Shown one piece after another: positions 31,011 to 38,077 of a DNA stretch of 64,000 nt. The DNA is taken from assembly GCA_017542485.1 (NCBI GenBank), contig JAFXXC010000033.1:1-64000 (forward strand), given 5' to 3'. Numbering within the stretch: position 1 is the stretch's first letter; each line of letters begins with the position of its first letter. The DNA comes from Acholeplasmatales bacterium. Its GTDB lineage: Bacteria > Bacillota_I > Bacilli_A > Acholeplasmatales > Anaeroplasmataceae. The notes under the pieces were generated by a model, which saw only the letters and a list, made by a program, of their open reading frames with translations, did not search any database and was not told the DNA's origin. The position numbers and the translations under genes were made by a program.

Positions 31011-31027
31011 CTTATTCTTTAAAAAAA

Positions 31028-31050
31028 TCAGTTGCCCTTTAGGCAACTGA
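31028..31050 (-). terminator. Terminator of the alarmone/partner-switching operon
   Basis: TCAGTTGCC and GGCAACTGA pair around a short loop, with ATTTTTTT following on the minus strand. It is directly after the phosphatase gene. Confidence 0.85.
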
Positions 31051-31058
31051 CTAAAATA

Positions 31059-32945
31059 TTATTTTTTAAATTTCTTTAATGTTAATACATTTTGATTATT
31101 TACATATTCATAATCTACTTCATCCATTATTTTCTTAACCATATAAATACCTAAACCACCAATTTCTCTTTCCTCACTTGAGGCAGTGATATTAGGATCT
31201 GCCTTTTCTAATGGATTAAATGGCTTTCCATTATCTTTAAATACAAATGTGACATAATCACCATGTCTTGATAAGGTAATTTCTACAGTACCTTTTTCTT
31301 TTTCTTTATCATATGCATAATTTGCAACATTAACAAATACTTCTTCTAATGCTGTATTTATCATAATAATATCTCTATTAGAGAATTCTAACAATCTTAA
31401 CAATTGAGATGAATACTCAAATAAATTATCTAATTCCTTAACGTCAGCTTCGAAAATTCTACTTTCAGTAATATTTATTTCATAATTAAAGCTATACATC
31501 AAAATAGTTATATCATCAAATTGTTCTGTATCAATAGAATGATTAGCTACGCTTTTTCTTAAATTTAATACAAAATCTCTTGGTGTTAAATCTTTATATT
31601 TATTAGAGAAATTTAATAATCTTTCTTCTCCATATAATTCATTATTTATATTGTGTGCTTCAGTTACACCATCTGTATATAATAATATCTTATCACCAAT
31701 TTTTAAATTAATTGTATTCTCAGTATAATTACATTCCTCAAAAGCACCTAAAACAACATTAGGCTTATCATTTAAATACTCTGCCTTACCATCCTTAACA
31801 ATTAATATTTTATTATGTCCAGCATTTGTATATTTTAATTCACCAGTATATAAATTCAAAATACCTAACCAGCATGTAACAAAAATATTTGCCTCATTAT
31901 TACTACATAAAGCTACATTACATCCCTTCATAATATGTGCTGTATCTCTTTTAAATGATAAAGTTAATGATTTAATTAAGGCTTCAGTTTTCATCATAAA
32001 TAACGCAGCTGGAATACCTTTACCACTAACATCACCAATAACTAATGCTAAATGTGATTCATCAATATAAAAATAATCATAAAAATCTCCACCGATTTCC
32101 TTTGCAGGAATCATTAAACCAAATATATTATCTTTATTTGCATCATTTAATGTTTTTGGTAATACACTTGTTTGTATTGACTTTGCAACATTAAGCTCAG
32201 ATTTCATCTTTTGCTTTTCTTTTACTCTTGATGATTCTTCTATTAATAATCTTAATGATCTTCTTGATATAGAAAAACAAACAAATGAAATAATAGTTAA
32301 TATAAACCATCTAGGAACATAATAATACAAAAATGCTTTTAAAAATCTATTATCTCCACTTTCCTTTAATTGATCTAACCAAGCTACTCTTTGTTGATAT
32401 GTTGCTTCATCAACTAATACTTCTACACCATTTACATTAATTGTATTAGCACCATTTAATAAATTAGAATCCCATTCACCTAACAACATACCCATAAATA
32501 TTGCAATAAACATTAATATTGTTGTTATTAAATAAGTGAAAAGCGATGCCTTAGGACTAAAATAATGATTAGCAAGTATTATACATGTTGCCCACATTAA
32601 TATTCCATGCTTTGGCAAAATTACATTTAATCCAAAGGTAACTAATATAAATTGTATTAACAAAAAATATTTAAATGCAGGTCGTTCGATTAGTTTAGTC
32701 TTTGTATAAATAATTGATGATAATAATATAACAAATAATATAGGAAAAAATATATTAACTAATCTTAAAGTACGATCTGGTACTTTAAATACACCTACAA
32801 TATATAAAATCCATACAATTATTATAATAAAAGAAGAAAATAAACATCCTTTAGCTAATCCCTTATTCGCATCTACTTCATTTTGCTTGTAGATTTTCAT
32901 ATTTAATTTTAATTGTTCATTTTTTAAATCTTCTACTATACCCAT
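31059..32945 (-). CDS. Membrane SpoIIE/RsbU-type phosphatase fused to RsbW-like kinase domain
   Basis: A protein of about 628 residues. Six or seven membrane segments (about 20-240) are followed by a PP2C/SpoIIE phosphatase domain with EIGGDFYDYF, IGDVSGKGIPAALFM, YTDGVTEA and QFDDITILMY, all metal-binding Asp present. The last 140 residues are a GHKL ATPase of the anti-sigma kinase type (N box NTALEEVFVNVANYAYD, G1 FKDNGKPFNP, G2 GGLGIYMVKKIMDEV). It could both phosphorylate and dephosphorylate a STAS protein such as the one encoded first in this operon. I use the ATG just after the upstream stop; two earlier ATGs at 32966 and 32957 are also possible. Confidence 0.88.
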   Translation of the reverse strand: MGIVEDLKNEQLKLNMKIYKQNEVDANKGLAKGCLFSSFIIIIVWILYIVGVFKVPDRTLRLVNIFFPILFVILLSSIIYTKTKLIERPAFKYFLLIQFILVTFGLNVILPKHGILMWATCIILANHYFSPKASLFTYLITTILMFIAIFMGMLLGEWDSNLLNGANTINVNGVEVLVDEATYQQRVAWLDQLKESGDNRFLKAFLYYYVPRWFILTIISFVCFSISRRSLRLLIEESSRVKEKQKMKSELNVAKSIQTSVLPKTLNDANKDNIFGLMIPAKEIGGDFYDYFYIDESHLALVIGDVSGKGIPAALFMMKTEALIKSLTLSFKRDTAHIMKGCNVALCSNNEANIFVTCWLGILNLYTGELKYTNAGHNKILIVKDGKAEYLNDKPNVVLGAFEECNYTENTINLKIGDKILLYTDGVTEAHNINNELYGEERLLNFSNKYKDLTPRDFVLNLRKSVANHSIDTEQFDDITILMYSFNYEINITESRIFEADVKELDNLFEYSSQLLRLLEFSNRDIIMINTALEEVFVNVANYAYDKEKEKGTVEITLSRHGDYVTFVFKDNGKPFNPLEKADPNITASSEEREIGGLGIYMVKKIMDEVDYEYVNNQNVLTLKKFKK

Positions 32946-32946
32946 A

Positions 32947-33522
32947 TTAAATACCATTAAAAACATCTTCTACTAAACTTTTAAATTCAATATAAGCATC
33001 TGTTTCCTCTAATCCTTCAAAACATTTTGTAAGCTCTGTATATCTCCATTTATGTAATTTTGGATCAGTTTCATGAAATCTTAACCAAAAACTATCACCA
33101 CATGTTTTAAAATCTGTTCTAATTGATCTCATATTAGATAACTTATCACCTAAAGCAACTATTTTACAATCCAAATTAGCATTCTTTAACCTATCAATAC
33201 CCATTTGTCTTGTTTCTACCCAATTCATCTTATCATAATTTGGAAAACTATTATTTGATTCAAATAAAACAATATCAGCTACTCTTTTACCAAATTCTTT
33301 TTTAATATCTTCATATGTTACATCAGTATCTTCAATTAAATCATGCATAGCTGCCGCAGCTAATAATTCATTATCGCTTGTTATGCTAGCAACAATACAC
33401 ATAGCCTCCATAGGATGAACTATATAAGGTATTTTTTTTAGTTTTCTTTCAGTATTTTTATGATGATTTACAGCAAATATTATGGCTCTATCAACAAAAT
33501 TAGTGTCAAAATACTCATTCAT
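32947..33522 (-). CDS. MESH1-like HD-domain alarmone hydrolase
   Basis: A 191-residue stand-alone HD hydrolase of the RelA/SpoT (ppGpp 3'-pyrophosphohydrolase) type. Metal and catalytic residues are present: His20-His21, PYIVHPMEA (His36), MHDLIEDT (His60-Asp61, Glu64-Asp65), and VALGDKLSNMRSI with the second Asp. It would remove pyrophosphate from (p)ppGpp or a related nucleotide. The start chosen is the ATG at 33520-33522, within the last codons of the synthetase gene, with GGAG nine bases upstream; a TTG at 33537 is the alternative. Direct coupling to the synthetase gene means the two are made together. Confidence 0.87.
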   Translation of the reverse strand: MNEYFDTNFVDRAIIFAVNHHKNTERKLKKIPYIVHPMEAMCIVASITSDNELLAAAAMHDLIEDTDVTYEDIKKEFGKRVADIVLFESNNSFPNYDKMNWVETRQMGIDRLKNANLDCKIVALGDKLSNMRSIRTDFKTCGDSFWLRFHETDPKLHKWRYTELTKCFEGLEETDAYIEFKSLVEDVFNGI

Positions 33523-34612
33523 CACTATCATCTCCAACCTTAATCAAACCCATACTTCTACCTATTTTAGTAAGTCTGGCTGCTGTTCTTTCATTAACTT
33601 TACGTTGACCATAAATAGTATCTAATAAAATCTTTACTACATTTTCACCCATATCTTTAGATAGTATATAAACTATACATAAAGCTAATGGTCCCGTAAC
33701 AGTAGTAATAATATCAATATCTTTTCCATCAAATTGTCTAATAGCAAATTCATATGCTAAATCAGAATATTCTCTAACAAAATCATCTAATTGCTTTAAT
33801 GTTTTAAATCCAAAAGACTTAAATACCATTAAGAAATTTGATAAAGAAGCTTCTTCAATTTCCATATTTCCAATAGTAGCTATACGTTTATTTAATTCAC
33901 CAAATCCTTCATTTTCAATATAAGCATTATATGAATCACCATTTAATTCAACATCCTCAAGCTTACCATTTCTGACAATTTGTCTTACTCTTCTTCTATA
34001 ATCTTCAATGCTATTTCTTAATTGACAGAAAGAATCATCTGCTATTTCTAATAATCCGGCTAATCTATTAAATGCTCTTAAATATTCTTTAGGTATTTCA
34101 ATATCGCTCTTATATCCTGTATCATGTTGAATAGATGCCCATGAATGTTGTAAAGTTGTTCTTAATTGAATTTCAAATTTTATTTTATTAATATTTTCAT
34201 CATTAGGATCATAATACATTTCCTTAGGTATTCTACAAATATAATGAAGTGATGAATATCCAAATTGATCAACATTATGCATTTTTCTCTTATCAATAGA
34301 ATTTTCCCAATCTATATCAAAACTTGATTCAACCTTAGCAGCGTATTTATCTACTTCATCCATATAGAATGTTACTACTCTAGCCCCAACAATATCCGTA
34401 ATATCAAAAATAGACTGATATTTATATCCCTTAAGCTCTAATTTTCCGGCTAATGATTTCTCAGTCTTTATTCTTGATTCAACACTATTTACAATAGTTC
34501 CAAAATATCTAACATATTGATGAAGTTCCTTCATTATAATGTCTTGCATCTTTGAAAATGTAGTTTGCATCTGACGATACTGTTCCATTATCATTTCACA
34601 ATGTAAATCCAT
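33515..34612 (-). CDS. RelA/SpoT-type alarmone synthetase, stand-alone
   Basis: A 365-residue protein with a RelA/SpoT nucleotidyltransferase domain at about 25-210 that would transfer pyrophosphate from ATP to GDP/GTP. Motifs: RIKTEKSLAGKLELKGY (basic ATP-binding), DITDIVGARVV (metal Asp), FGYSSLHYICR (Tyr that stacks on G), and EIQLRTTLQHSWASIQHD (catalytic Glu). There is no HD, TGS or ACT domain. The C-terminal 150 residues are helical and unlike the usual small synthetases RelP/RelQ. GGGAG precedes the ATG, 4 bp after the STAS gene. The paired hydrolase downstream recalls toxic small-alarmone-synthetase systems with a hydrolase antidote. Confidence 0.88.
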   Translation of the reverse strand: MDLHCEMIMEQYRQMQTTFSKMQDIIMKELHQYVRYFGTIVNSVESRIKTEKSLAGKLELKGYKYQSIFDITDIVGARVVTFYMDEVDKYAAKVESSFDIDWENSIDKRKMHNVDQFGYSSLHYICRIPKEMYYDPNDENINKIKFEIQLRTTLQHSWASIQHDTGYKSDIEIPKEYLRAFNRLAGLLEIADDSFCQLRNSIEDYRRRVRQIVRNGKLEDVELNGDSYNAYIENEGFGELNKRIATIGNMEIEEASLSNFLMVFKSFGFKTLKQLDDFVREYSDLAYEFAIRQFDGKDIDIITTVTGPLALCIVYILSKDMGENVVKILLDTIYGQRKVNERTAARLTKIGRSMGLIKVGDDSDE

Positions 34613-34616
34613 AATA

Positions 34617-34919
34617 TTACTCCCTAATATTTAAAAATGTAGAAAAACCGGTCATATCAAAAACTTCCATAACCTCATCCTTTGGACTTAAAACAAATAA
34701 TTTACCATTATTACTTGTCATTTGCTTATGGAACATTAATATAATTCTTAATCCTGCACTAGATATATAATCTAAATCTTTTAAATCCAAATTTAATTCC
34801 TTTACTCCATCAAGACTATTTTTAATAGAACCTTCAAGTTCAGGAGCTGTATTTGTATCTAATCTTCCAGCAACACGCACATATAACTTATTTTCAATTA
34901 ATTCTACATTAACATCCAT
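34617..34919 (-). CDS. STAS-domain anti-anti-sigma factor (RsbV/SpoIIAA-like)
   Basis: A 100-residue single STAS domain. RVAGRLDTNTAPELE and LDLKDLDYISSAGLRIILMF are the conserved parts; the Ser in DYISSAGLR is the residue phosphorylated by RsbW/SpoIIAB kinases. In partner switching the unphosphorylated form frees a sigma factor from its anti-sigma. No sigma factor or separate anti-sigma gene is in the window, so the final target is unknown. It is the first gene of the operon with the alarmone enzymes and the phosphatase/kinase fusion. Confidence 0.9.
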   Translation of the reverse strand: MDVNVELIENKLYVRVAGRLDTNTAPELEGSIKNSLDGVKELNLDLKDLDYISSAGLRIILMFHKQMTSNNGKLFVLSPKDEVMEVFDMTGFSTFLNIRE

Positions 34920-34953: not shown

Positions 34954-35009
34954 ATTAATTTAGTTAATTTTAGCATAAACATTATTTTTTTACAATAAAA
35001 CCAAAATAA

Positions 35010-35031
35010 AATGCTTGGTCTTCCAAGCATT
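35010..35031 (-). terminator. Terminator of the ArsR-type gene
   Basis: AATGCTTGG and CCAAGCATT pair around TCTT, followed by TTATTTTGG on the minus strand. Confidence 0.85.
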
Positions 35032-35038
35032 TCATTAA

Positions 35039-37528: not shown

Positions 37529-38077
37529 TTAGTCTTCGTATAAGTCCTCGTAATCATCCATAATTTTGTTATACTTATCTTCATCGTCATCACTATAGTT
37601 ATCTTCATCTTCATCTTCGTCAGATTCTTCATCTTCAACATATTTGTCGTCTTCATCATCCAACTCGTCTTCGTCTTCATCACTATAGTTATCTTCATCT
37701 TCTTCATCGTCAGATTCTTCATCTTCTTCGTCTTCGTCATCCTCATAATCATCTGATGTAGAATCATCTAACTCGTCTTCATCTTCATCAACAGTTTCAT
37801 CTTCATACTCTTCATCTTTAGAAATGAATGATGAACCATCCTTATCAAATTGATCTAATGATTGACGACTCTTTAAATCCCAATTATCATCACCCATGTA
37901 TACGAATTTTGATGATATTGTAATATCTGTATATAATTTAGCAGCGATAGTTCCATCAGGATCACTAATACCTTTTTTTGCAAGTGTTTCCTCAATCAAA
38001 GTATAAATATTGATTGGACCATCTAAGCTCTCCATAATTTCTAATGAAATTTCAATTAAAGACATTTGGTTTTCCAT
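37529..38077 (-). CDS. rpoE: RNA polymerase delta subunit
   Basis: A 182-residue Gram-positive RNA polymerase accessory subunit. The first 95 residues are the HARE-HTH fold (SLIEISLEIMESLDGPINIY, SKFVYMGDDNWDLKS). From about 105 onward the protein is almost only Asp, Glu, Ser and Tyr, the acidic tail that competes with nucleic acids for polymerase. The tail is coded by imperfect tandem repeats, including two near-identical blocks with CACTATAGTTATCTTCATC at about 37590 and 37680. AGGAGGGC lies before the ATG. It helps recycle polymerase and respond to changes in nucleotide level. Confidence 0.92.
   Translation of the reverse strand: MENQMSLIEISLEIMESLDGPINIYTLIEETLAKKGISDPDGTIAAKLYTDITISSKFVYMGDDNWDLKSRQSLDQFDKDGSSFISKDEEYEDETVDEDEDELDDSTSDDYEDDEDEEDEESDDEEDEDNYSDEDEDELDDEDDKYVEDEESDEDEDEDNYSDDDEDKYNKIMDDYEDLYED

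What the first reader, a model, noticed from the sequence alone, without database searches (positions are those of the whole stretch)
31059..34919. Alarmone synthetase and hydrolase as split, overlapping genes inside a partner-switching operon
Seen: STAS protein, RelA-type synthetase (catalytic motifs present, no HD/TGS/ACT), overlapping MESH1-like HD hydrolase, then membrane SpoIIE-type phosphatase fused to an RsbW-like kinase domain, all 1-8 bp apart or overlapping. Known: bifunctional Rel normally holds both activities in one chain; toxic small alarmone synthetases can be paired with a hydrolase antidote; partner switching uses STAS/kinase/phosphatase sets. Inference: this operon may couple a membrane-sensed signal to nucleotide alarmone level through the STAS protein, or be a toxin-antidote-like pair under such control. 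I have not met this four-gene combination as a described system.
Basis: partly seen in the sequence, partly recalled or inferred. Interest (0 to 1): 0.7.

Follow-up and report, generated by a model that had tools for sequence, protein, structure and literature searches.

The report
Phospho-switch operon carrying stress-alarmone enzymes
In uncultured gut bacteria, a membrane sensor and protein on/off switch of the kind that normally controls gene-reading factors is encoded together with the enzymes that make and destroy a stress-signal nucleotide, suggesting a direct route from an outside signal to the growth brake.

Summary
On the minus strand, between two terminators, lie STAS (100 aa), a RelA/SpoT synthetase (365 aa), an HD hydrolase (191 aa) and a membrane SpoIIE phosphatase fused to an RsbW-like kinase (628 aa). 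Gaps are 4 bp, an 8-bp overlap and 1 bp. All catalytic and phospho-acceptor motifs are intact. The set is not a split Rel: the same genome has an intact 732-aa Rel. The synthetase belongs to a long-SAS family (phrog_9640) seen elsewhere as a lone gene on phages, plasmids and chromosomes; I found it beside a STAS gene only in this Acholeplasmatales lineage. Orthologues occur in 12 genomes of two families; STAS is adjacent in all but one. Two have STAS-synthetase-kinase only. In one genome the synthetase has lost every partner and has about 2.5-3.5 times as many unique changes as the window's copy, while flanking genes do not. A relative encodes an HD hydrolase fused to STAS. Best reading: a partner-switching system whose output is an alarmone synthetase, analogous to SiaABCD for c-di-GMP. 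The toxin-antidote reading is disfavoured. No activity or binding has been shown. I found no published description in the held library.

The parts
34617..34919 (-). STAS protein (anti-anti-sigma type, 100 aa) with invariant SSAGLR phospho-acceptor site
   Evidence: PF01740 1.7e-17, TIGR00377 1.1e-22 above its cut-off; S53, S54 invariant in 11 orthologues; profile hits SpoIIAA/RsbV structures
33515..34612 (-). RelA/SpoT-type synthetase (365 aa) with its own C-terminal helical domain (about residues 205-358)
   Evidence: PF04607 3.9e-16; phrog_9640 8.3e-63; R47, K49, S53, K57, D73, R78, Y119, H123, E147, Q149, R151, H163, K168 invariant even against phage and plasmid relatives; fold search finds RelQ/RelP first
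32947..33522 (-). small alarmone hydrolase, HD_4 family (191 aa), start ATG 33522
   Evidence: PF13328 9.4e-16; profile hits solved small HD hydrolases 7qoe 1.1e-29 and Lmo0812 1.1e-25, ahead of Rel 1.3e-21; R26, H36, H60, D61, E64, D65, D126, N130 invariant in 7 orthologues
31059..32945 (-). membrane SpoIIE/PP2C phosphatase fused to RsbW-like HATPase_c_2 kinase (628 aa), start ATG 32945
   Evidence: PF07228 9.2e-48, PF13581 1.6e-22; at least four hydrophobic segments in residues 28-158; GGD, GDVSGKG, YTDG, FDDITI, ALEE, GGLGI motifs present
34967..34995 (-). probable promoter with extended -10 (TTGTAA-17-TAAAAT, TG before -10)
   Evidence: such matches are not above chance by number; a similar TGnTAnnAT element precedes STAS in 10 of 11 loci, and a near-identical one precedes the partner-less synthetase of G023
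31026..31052 (-). terminator after the operon
   Evidence: 12-pair stem plus T run
35005..35036 (-). terminator of the upstream ArsR gene, separating it from the operon
   Evidence: 14-pair stem plus T-rich tail

Best explanation
A partner-switching signalling module whose output is an alarmone synthetase instead of a sigma factor. Inferred working: the membrane SpoIIE/kinase protein senses an unknown signal and sets the phosphorylation state of the STAS protein, its kinase domain phosphorylating the STAS serine and its PP2C domain removing the phosphate. Unphosphorylated STAS switches the synthetase on, either by binding it directly (as SiaC does to the diguanylate cyclase SiaD) or by pulling an inhibiting kinase domain off it (as RsbV does for RsbW/SigB). 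The small HD hydrolase in the same transcript clears the alarmone and resets the system. Shown here: gene content, intact motifs, conservation and co-evolution. Inferred: biochemistry, direction of control, identity of the nucleotide ((p)ppGpp most likely).
For: Single transcription unit bounded by terminators. STAS is 2-6 bp upstream of the synthetase in 11 of 12 genomes from two families. Two genomes of another family have STAS-synthetase-kinase with no phosphatase domain and no HD, so kinase and STAS are the core partners. HD and the phosphatase domain are present together (7 genomes; in an eighth the contig ends inside HD) or absent together (4). In G023, sister to the window (100/98), the synthetase stands alone behind a matching promoter and has 46-57 unique changes against 16-21 in the window (p 1e-4 to 3e-6), while neighbouring LacI (window:G023 21:26, 23:23, 16:22) is not accelerated and CBP shows a weak excess with only one of three outgroups (35:38, 26:46, 35:37): the partners constrain the synthetase. 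An HD hydrolase is fused to STAS in a kinase-PP2C operon of G007, and its nearest small HD relatives are this operon's HDs. Same-lineage switches are joined to other enzymes and transporters: STAS-APH fusions, a MATE-HATPase fusion. Precedent: STAS-type proteins control diguanylate cyclases SiaD, HsbD and BgrR (PMC8457831).
Against: No binding, phosphorylation or enzymatic data; no predicted complex. The G023 synthetase survives with catalytic residues intact without STAS or kinase beside it, so these are not absolutely required. G022 keeps STAS-synthetase with no kinase beside it. G023 is one lineage on a fragmented MAG and its contig begins just upstream. Genomes are incomplete (the window's is 75%). 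The kinase could also act on an unlinked target.
Confidence: 0.55

Rival explanations
1. The same switch gates the enzyme, but the enzyme does not make (p)ppGpp: it makes (p)ppApp or pyrophosphorylates tRNA, giving a switch-controlled growth arrest or defence effector.
For: The synthetase groups with a long-SAS family carried on prophages, an inovirus and small plasmids, typical of defence or toxic SAS; PADLOC candidate family PDC-S33 matches its synthetase domain, though it matches the ordinary RelQ-like SAS of this genome better. Some small hydrolases also remove (p)ppApp (PMC7644958).
Against: The nearest solved structures by profile are RelP and RelQ (56-47 bits); CapRel scores 17 bits and FaRel2 (8PU4) is not hit at E up to 10. 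The family is also a lone chromosomal gene, mostly beside hprK-lgt, in other genomes of the class.
Confidence: 0.17
2. STAS, kinase and phosphatase control an unlinked target such as a sigma factor, and the synthetase and hydrolase are merely co-transcribed.
For: Kinases of this class usually bind sigma factors; the window genome holds several sigma factors, including a 295-aa sigma-70-like one.
Against: No sigma gene was seen in or beside the loci. In the STAS-synthetase-kinase genomes the only sigma genes found are RpoD-size and ~185-aa ones. The synthetase lies between STAS and kinase in all loci that have the kinase, and its evolutionary rate rises when they are lost.
Confidence: 0.17
3. 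A toxin-antidote pair: the synthetase is a toxin and the HD hydrolase its enzymatic antitoxin, like FaRel/aTfaRel.
For: Overlapping synthetase and HD genes; precedent of a small alarmone hydrolase antitoxin in the Cellulomonas marina faRel operon (PMC11782079).
Against: Four genomes keep the synthetase with intact catalytic motifs and no HD; one of these (G023) is sister to the window, so the HD was lost there. HD tracks the phosphatase domain rather than the synthetase. The operon sits beside the same CBP gene in six loci, not in an island.
Confidence: 0.08
4. An ordinary bifunctional Rel split by a frameshift or a decayed gene.
For: Rel normally holds both activities in one chain.
Against: Intact 732-aa Rel in the same genome; gene order synthetase-HD is the reverse of Rel; the HD is nearer to small hydrolases than to Rel; the arrangement is conserved in at least 7 genomes.
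Confidence: 0.01

Closest known systems
SiaABCD of Pseudomonas aeruginosa (and HptB-HsbR-HsbA/HsbD, BgrSTUWV/BgrR)
   Same: Membrane PP2C phosphatase, kinase and STAS-like protein in one operon with a nucleotide second-messenger synthase; the unphosphorylated partner activates the synthase (PMC8457831)
   Different: There the output is a GGDEF diguanylate cyclase and SiaC is DUF1987; here it is a RelA/SpoT synthetase with a true STAS, phosphatase and kinase are fused, and a matching hydrolase is in the operon
RsbU/RsbV/RsbW-SigB and SpoIIE/SpoIIAA/SpoIIAB-SigF partner switches
   Same: Same three protein classes with intact motifs
   Different: No sigma factor in the locus; enzymes take its place
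Small alarmone synthetases RelP/RelQ
   Same: Synthetase fold and catalytic motifs
   Different: Separate branch of the tree; extra 160-aa C-terminal domain; partner-switch operon
phrog_9640 long SAS family (phages, inovirus, small plasmids)
   Same: Same family over residues 8-282, 8.3e-63; EIQxRTxLQHxWAxIxHDxGYK-like signature
   Different: Relatives examined are lone genes with no STAS, HD or kinase alongside
FaRel/aTfaRel toxSAS operon with small alarmone hydrolase
   Same: Synthetase next to a small alarmone hydrolase (PMC11782079)
   Different: No dedicated protein antitoxin; HD dispensable; partner-switch genes present
Mesh1/small alarmone hydrolases
   Same: HD motif residues invariant; solved small HD hydrolases are the best profile hits
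   Different: Embedded in a partner-switch operon; a relative is fused to STAS

Membership tests
Partner-switching system | STAS protein with phosphorylatable Ser/Thr | tested here: met
   SSAGLR invariant in 11 STAS orthologues; phosphorylation itself not shown
Partner-switching system | HATPase_c_2 kinase of RsbW/SpoIIAB type | tested here: met
   PF13581 1.6e-22; N and G box motifs intact
Partner-switching system | PP2C/SpoIIE phosphatase with metal-binding aspartates | tested here: met
   PF07228 9.2e-48; GGD, GDVSGKG, YTDG, FDDITI; absent in the two STAS-synthetase-kinase loci
Partner-switching system | Reversible binding of a target controlled by STAS phosphorylation | not testable with these tools
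   No interaction assay; only genetic linkage, fusions and rate change
Partner-switching system | Sigma factor target encoded in the locus (classical form) | tested here: not met
   No sigma gene in the loci; RpoD- and ECF-size sigma genes elsewhere
Small alarmone synthetase (RSH) | RelA_SpoT domain with catalytic residues, no HD/TGS/ACT in the chain | tested here: met
Small alarmone synthetase (RSH) | Pyrophosphate transfer to GDP/GTP | not testable with these tools
   Needs an enzyme assay
RelP/RelQ subgroup | Falls in the RelP/RelQ branch | tested here: not met
   Synthetase clade (100/100) lies with long SAS of mobile elements (99/96, with L025), apart from RelP/RelQ and RelQ-like chromosomal SAS (87/85)
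phrog_9640 long SAS | Profile match over synthetase domain and start of C-terminal domain | tested here: met
   8.3e-63, residues 8-282
toxSAS toxin-antitoxin (FaRel, FaRel2, CapRel) | Closest solved relatives are toxSYNTH domains | tested here: not met
   CapRel 17 bits, FaRel2 not hit; RelP/RelQ 47-56 bits
toxSAS toxin-antitoxin (FaRel, FaRel2, CapRel) | Obligatory linked antitoxin | tested here: not met
   HD absent from 4 of 12 genomes that keep the synthetase; in G023 no partner is left in the locus
toxSAS toxin-antitoxin (FaRel, FaRel2, CapRel) | Toxic when expressed alone | not testable with these tools
   Needs expression in a laboratory strain
SiaABCD | GGDEF output and DUF1987 partner | tested here: not met
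   RelA_SpoT and STAS instead
Small alarmone hydrolase (Mesh1-like) | HD_4 domain with metal and catalytic residues | tested here: met
   R26, H36, H60, D61, E64, D65, D126, N130 invariant; 7qoe 1.1e-29
Long bifunctional Rel | HD-synthetase-TGS-ACT in one chain | tested here: not met
   Separate genes in reverse order; own Rel of 732 aa elsewhere

The most novel reading that the evidence does not exclude
A phosphorylation-driven partner switch that acts directly on an alarmone synthetase and hydrolase, i.e. a sensory route into the stringent response that bypasses ribosome and Rel, in a lineage (Acholeplasmatales relatives) that has repeatedly rewired partner switches from sigma factors to enzymes and transporters (STAS-synthetase, HD-STAS, STAS-APH, MATE-kinase).
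Probability: 0.45. Interest if true: 0.75.

Novelty: new variant of a known kind. Interest (0 to 1): 0.62.

Why it matters
Control of small alarmone synthetases is usually discussed in terms of transcription, nucleotide allostery or antitoxins (my own knowledge). A membrane sensor that switches a synthetase and a hydrolase through a phosphorylated STAS protein would be a new post-translational input to the stringent response. It would extend to alarmones a logic so far seen for c-di-GMP cyclases, and show how an enzyme family common on phages and plasmids was built into a host signalling system.

Tried and rejected
Split ordinary Rel: rejected, intact Rel in the genome. HD as obligatory antidote: disfavoured by loci lacking it. 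Anti-phage defence gene: PADLOC PDC-S33 matches only the synthetase domain and matches the ordinary SAS of this genome better. C-terminal domain in distant genomes: a marginal G258 hit proved to be a chance match in an AroE-AroK gene. STAS next to long SAS elsewhere in the phylum: none of eight loci; 'phylum' here is the tool's sampled group, and other phyla could not be sampled because no genome handle was available. Pfam on the membrane domain: nothing. Full-length fold search: C-terminal domain without match, viral library uninformative. Relative-rate result for G022 is not clean, since its CBP is also fast. Paper searches for STAS or partner switching with alarmone synthetases gave nothing relevant. 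An aromatic-x-x-aromatic motif (Y228..Y231) after the synthetase domain recalls the YXXY motif that blocks toxSAS enzymes (PMC11782079), but it is short and I did not test it.
Full report
Observation. STAS 34919-34617; synthetase 34612-33515 (4-bp gap); HD 33522-32947 (ATG at 33522, 8-bp overlap); SpoIIE-kinase 32945-31059 (ATG at 32945, 1-bp gap). Terminator-like hairpins at 35036-35005 and 31052-31026 isolate them as one unit. A TTGTAA-17-TAAAAT element with extended -10 lies about 48 nt before STAS, and similar TGnTAnnAT elements precede STAS in 10 of 11 loci. The promoter scan as a whole is not above chance, so its support is the conservation.

Organism. The window lies in an unnamed 1.69-Mb draft genome, 75% complete. 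Two same-genus genomes have contigs of the same lengths as public contigs titled Acholeplasmatales bacterium (goat reticulum) and Bacillales bacterium UBA7004. The genome also has an intact 732-aa Rel and a RelQ-like SAS, so the set is neither a split Rel nor the only alarmone enzymes.

The proteins. Catalytic motifs are intact throughout. Synthetase: R47, K49, S53, K57, D73, R78, Y119, H123, E147, Q149, R151, H163 and K168 are invariant even against phage and plasmid relatives. HD: R26, H36, H60, D61, E64, D65, D126 and N130 invariant, with solved small HD hydrolases as best structural relatives, ahead of Rel. STAS: SSAGLR invariant. SpoIIE-kinase: PP2C and kinase motifs present, with at least four hydrophobic segments in front. 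The synthetase adds a C-terminal helical domain of about 160 residues, modelled with confidence, without structural match.

Origin of the synthetase. It matches phrog_9640 at 8.3e-63. Relatives are lone genes in an IMG/VR prophage, a Bacteroides phage-plasmid, a 3.5-kb Klebsiella plasmid, a Vibrio inovirus and a Mycobacterium abscessus prophage, and lone chromosomal genes, mostly beside hprK-lgt, in another family of the class. In the tree these mobile relatives group with the operon synthetases apart from RelP/RelQ and the chromosomal RelQ-like SAS. CapRel is a weak and FaRel2 no profile hit. None of the loci examined outside the lineage has a STAS neighbour.

Conservation. Orthologues occur in 10 of 27 genomes of the genus and 2 of 3 of family f2, and by the C-terminal domain in no other genome of the class and phylum samples. 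Seven genomes have the full four-gene set; in G011 it is split over two contigs, and an eighth (G006) is cut at a contig end inside HD. G055 and G059 have STAS-synthetase-kinase, the kinase being a stand-alone 138-142 aa protein, with no HD and no phosphatase. G022 has STAS-synthetase only. G023 has the synthetase alone. HD and the phosphatase domain are present or absent together. In six loci the operon lies next to the same CBP gene.

Rate test. G023 is the sister of the window's synthetase (100/98). It lost STAS, HD and SpoIIE-kinase but keeps a matching promoter. With three outgroups its synthetase has 55, 57 and 46 unique changes against 21, 17 and 16 in the window (p 1e-4, 3e-6, 1e-4). 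Its neighbours are not consistently accelerated (G023:window): CBP 38:35, 46:26, 37:35; LacI 26:21, 23:23, 22:16. So the synthetase loses constraint when its partners go, as expected if they touch or control it. This is the strongest evidence here that the operon is a functional unit; it rests on one clean lineage and on a contig that starts 411 bp before the gene.

Related switches in the same lineage. G007 has kinase, PP2C, STAS-APH and an HD hydrolase fused to STAS (HD_4 6.7e-15, STAS 1.3e-9); apart from itself its best matches among 120 genomes are this operon's HDs. G002 has STAS-APH beside a SpoIIE-kinase with the same membrane domain. The window's own genome has a MATE transporter fused to an RsbW-like domain beside STAS and SpoIIE-kinase. 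Partner switches in this lineage are thus repeatedly joined to enzymes and transporters.

Mechanism. The best-supported model is a partner switch acting on the synthetase, with HD as reset enzyme. Partner-switch control of a nucleotide second-messenger synthase is known for diguanylate cyclases SiaD, HsbD and BgrR (PMC8457831). For SiaD, the unphosphorylated partner binds and activates, and kinase action prevents it. Both that scheme and the RsbV/RsbW scheme predict that phosphatase activity raises synthetase activity. Direct binding, sign and product are inferred. HD as antidote is disfavoured because the synthetase is kept without it. I found no paper joining STAS or partner switching with a small alarmone synthetase in the held library; subscription papers are largely not held.

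Verdict. It is a new variant of a known kind, partner switching, with a new output, and awaits simple biochemistry.

Noticed in passing
L098:5921-10002 (G007:C8): Operon of RsbW-like kinase, PP2C phosphatase, STAS fused to an APH-type phosphotransferase, and an HD alarmone hydrolase fused to STAS.
   Followed up: partly
L115:4896-9114 (own genome, contig C41): MATE transporter fused to an RsbW-like HATPase_c_2 domain, next to STAS and a SpoIIE-kinase protein, downstream of a large ORF that looks like a peptide-synthetase condensation protein; similar sets in L111 and L112.
   Followed up: partly
L101:5331-7961, also L100, L102-L109: STAS and SpoIIAB-like kinase genes directly followed by spoVAC, spoVAD and spoVAE-like genes, without a sigma-F gene, in family f1; L099 (family f4) has a sigma-like gene in between.
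   Followed up: partly
L113:6462-9499 (G002:C120): STAS-APH fusion followed by a SpoIIE-kinase with the same membrane domain as the window's: a sister switch with a phosphotransferase in place of the alarmone enzymes.
   Followed up: partly
L120:436-1572; L121:2971-3981; L118:3989-5062; L117:1401-2465; L122:2974-3993: Lone long SAS genes (phrog_9640-like) on a 3.5-kb Klebsiella plasmid, a Vibrio inovirus, a Bacteroides phage-plasmid and two prophages: candidates for phage-exclusion or toxic SAS genes.
   Followed up: partly
L044:9156-10229: A MASE6-GGDEF diguanylate cyclase lies directly upstream of the STAS-synthetase-kinase set in G055 only.
   Followed up: no
L172-L176, L178, L179: A long SAS gene follows hprK and lgt in several genomes of family f17 of the same class, a conserved chromosomal setting without partners.
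   Followed up: no
window 37529-38077: HARE-HTH (RNA polymerase delta-like) protein with a long acidic Asp/Glu tail of low-complexity sequence.
   Followed up: no
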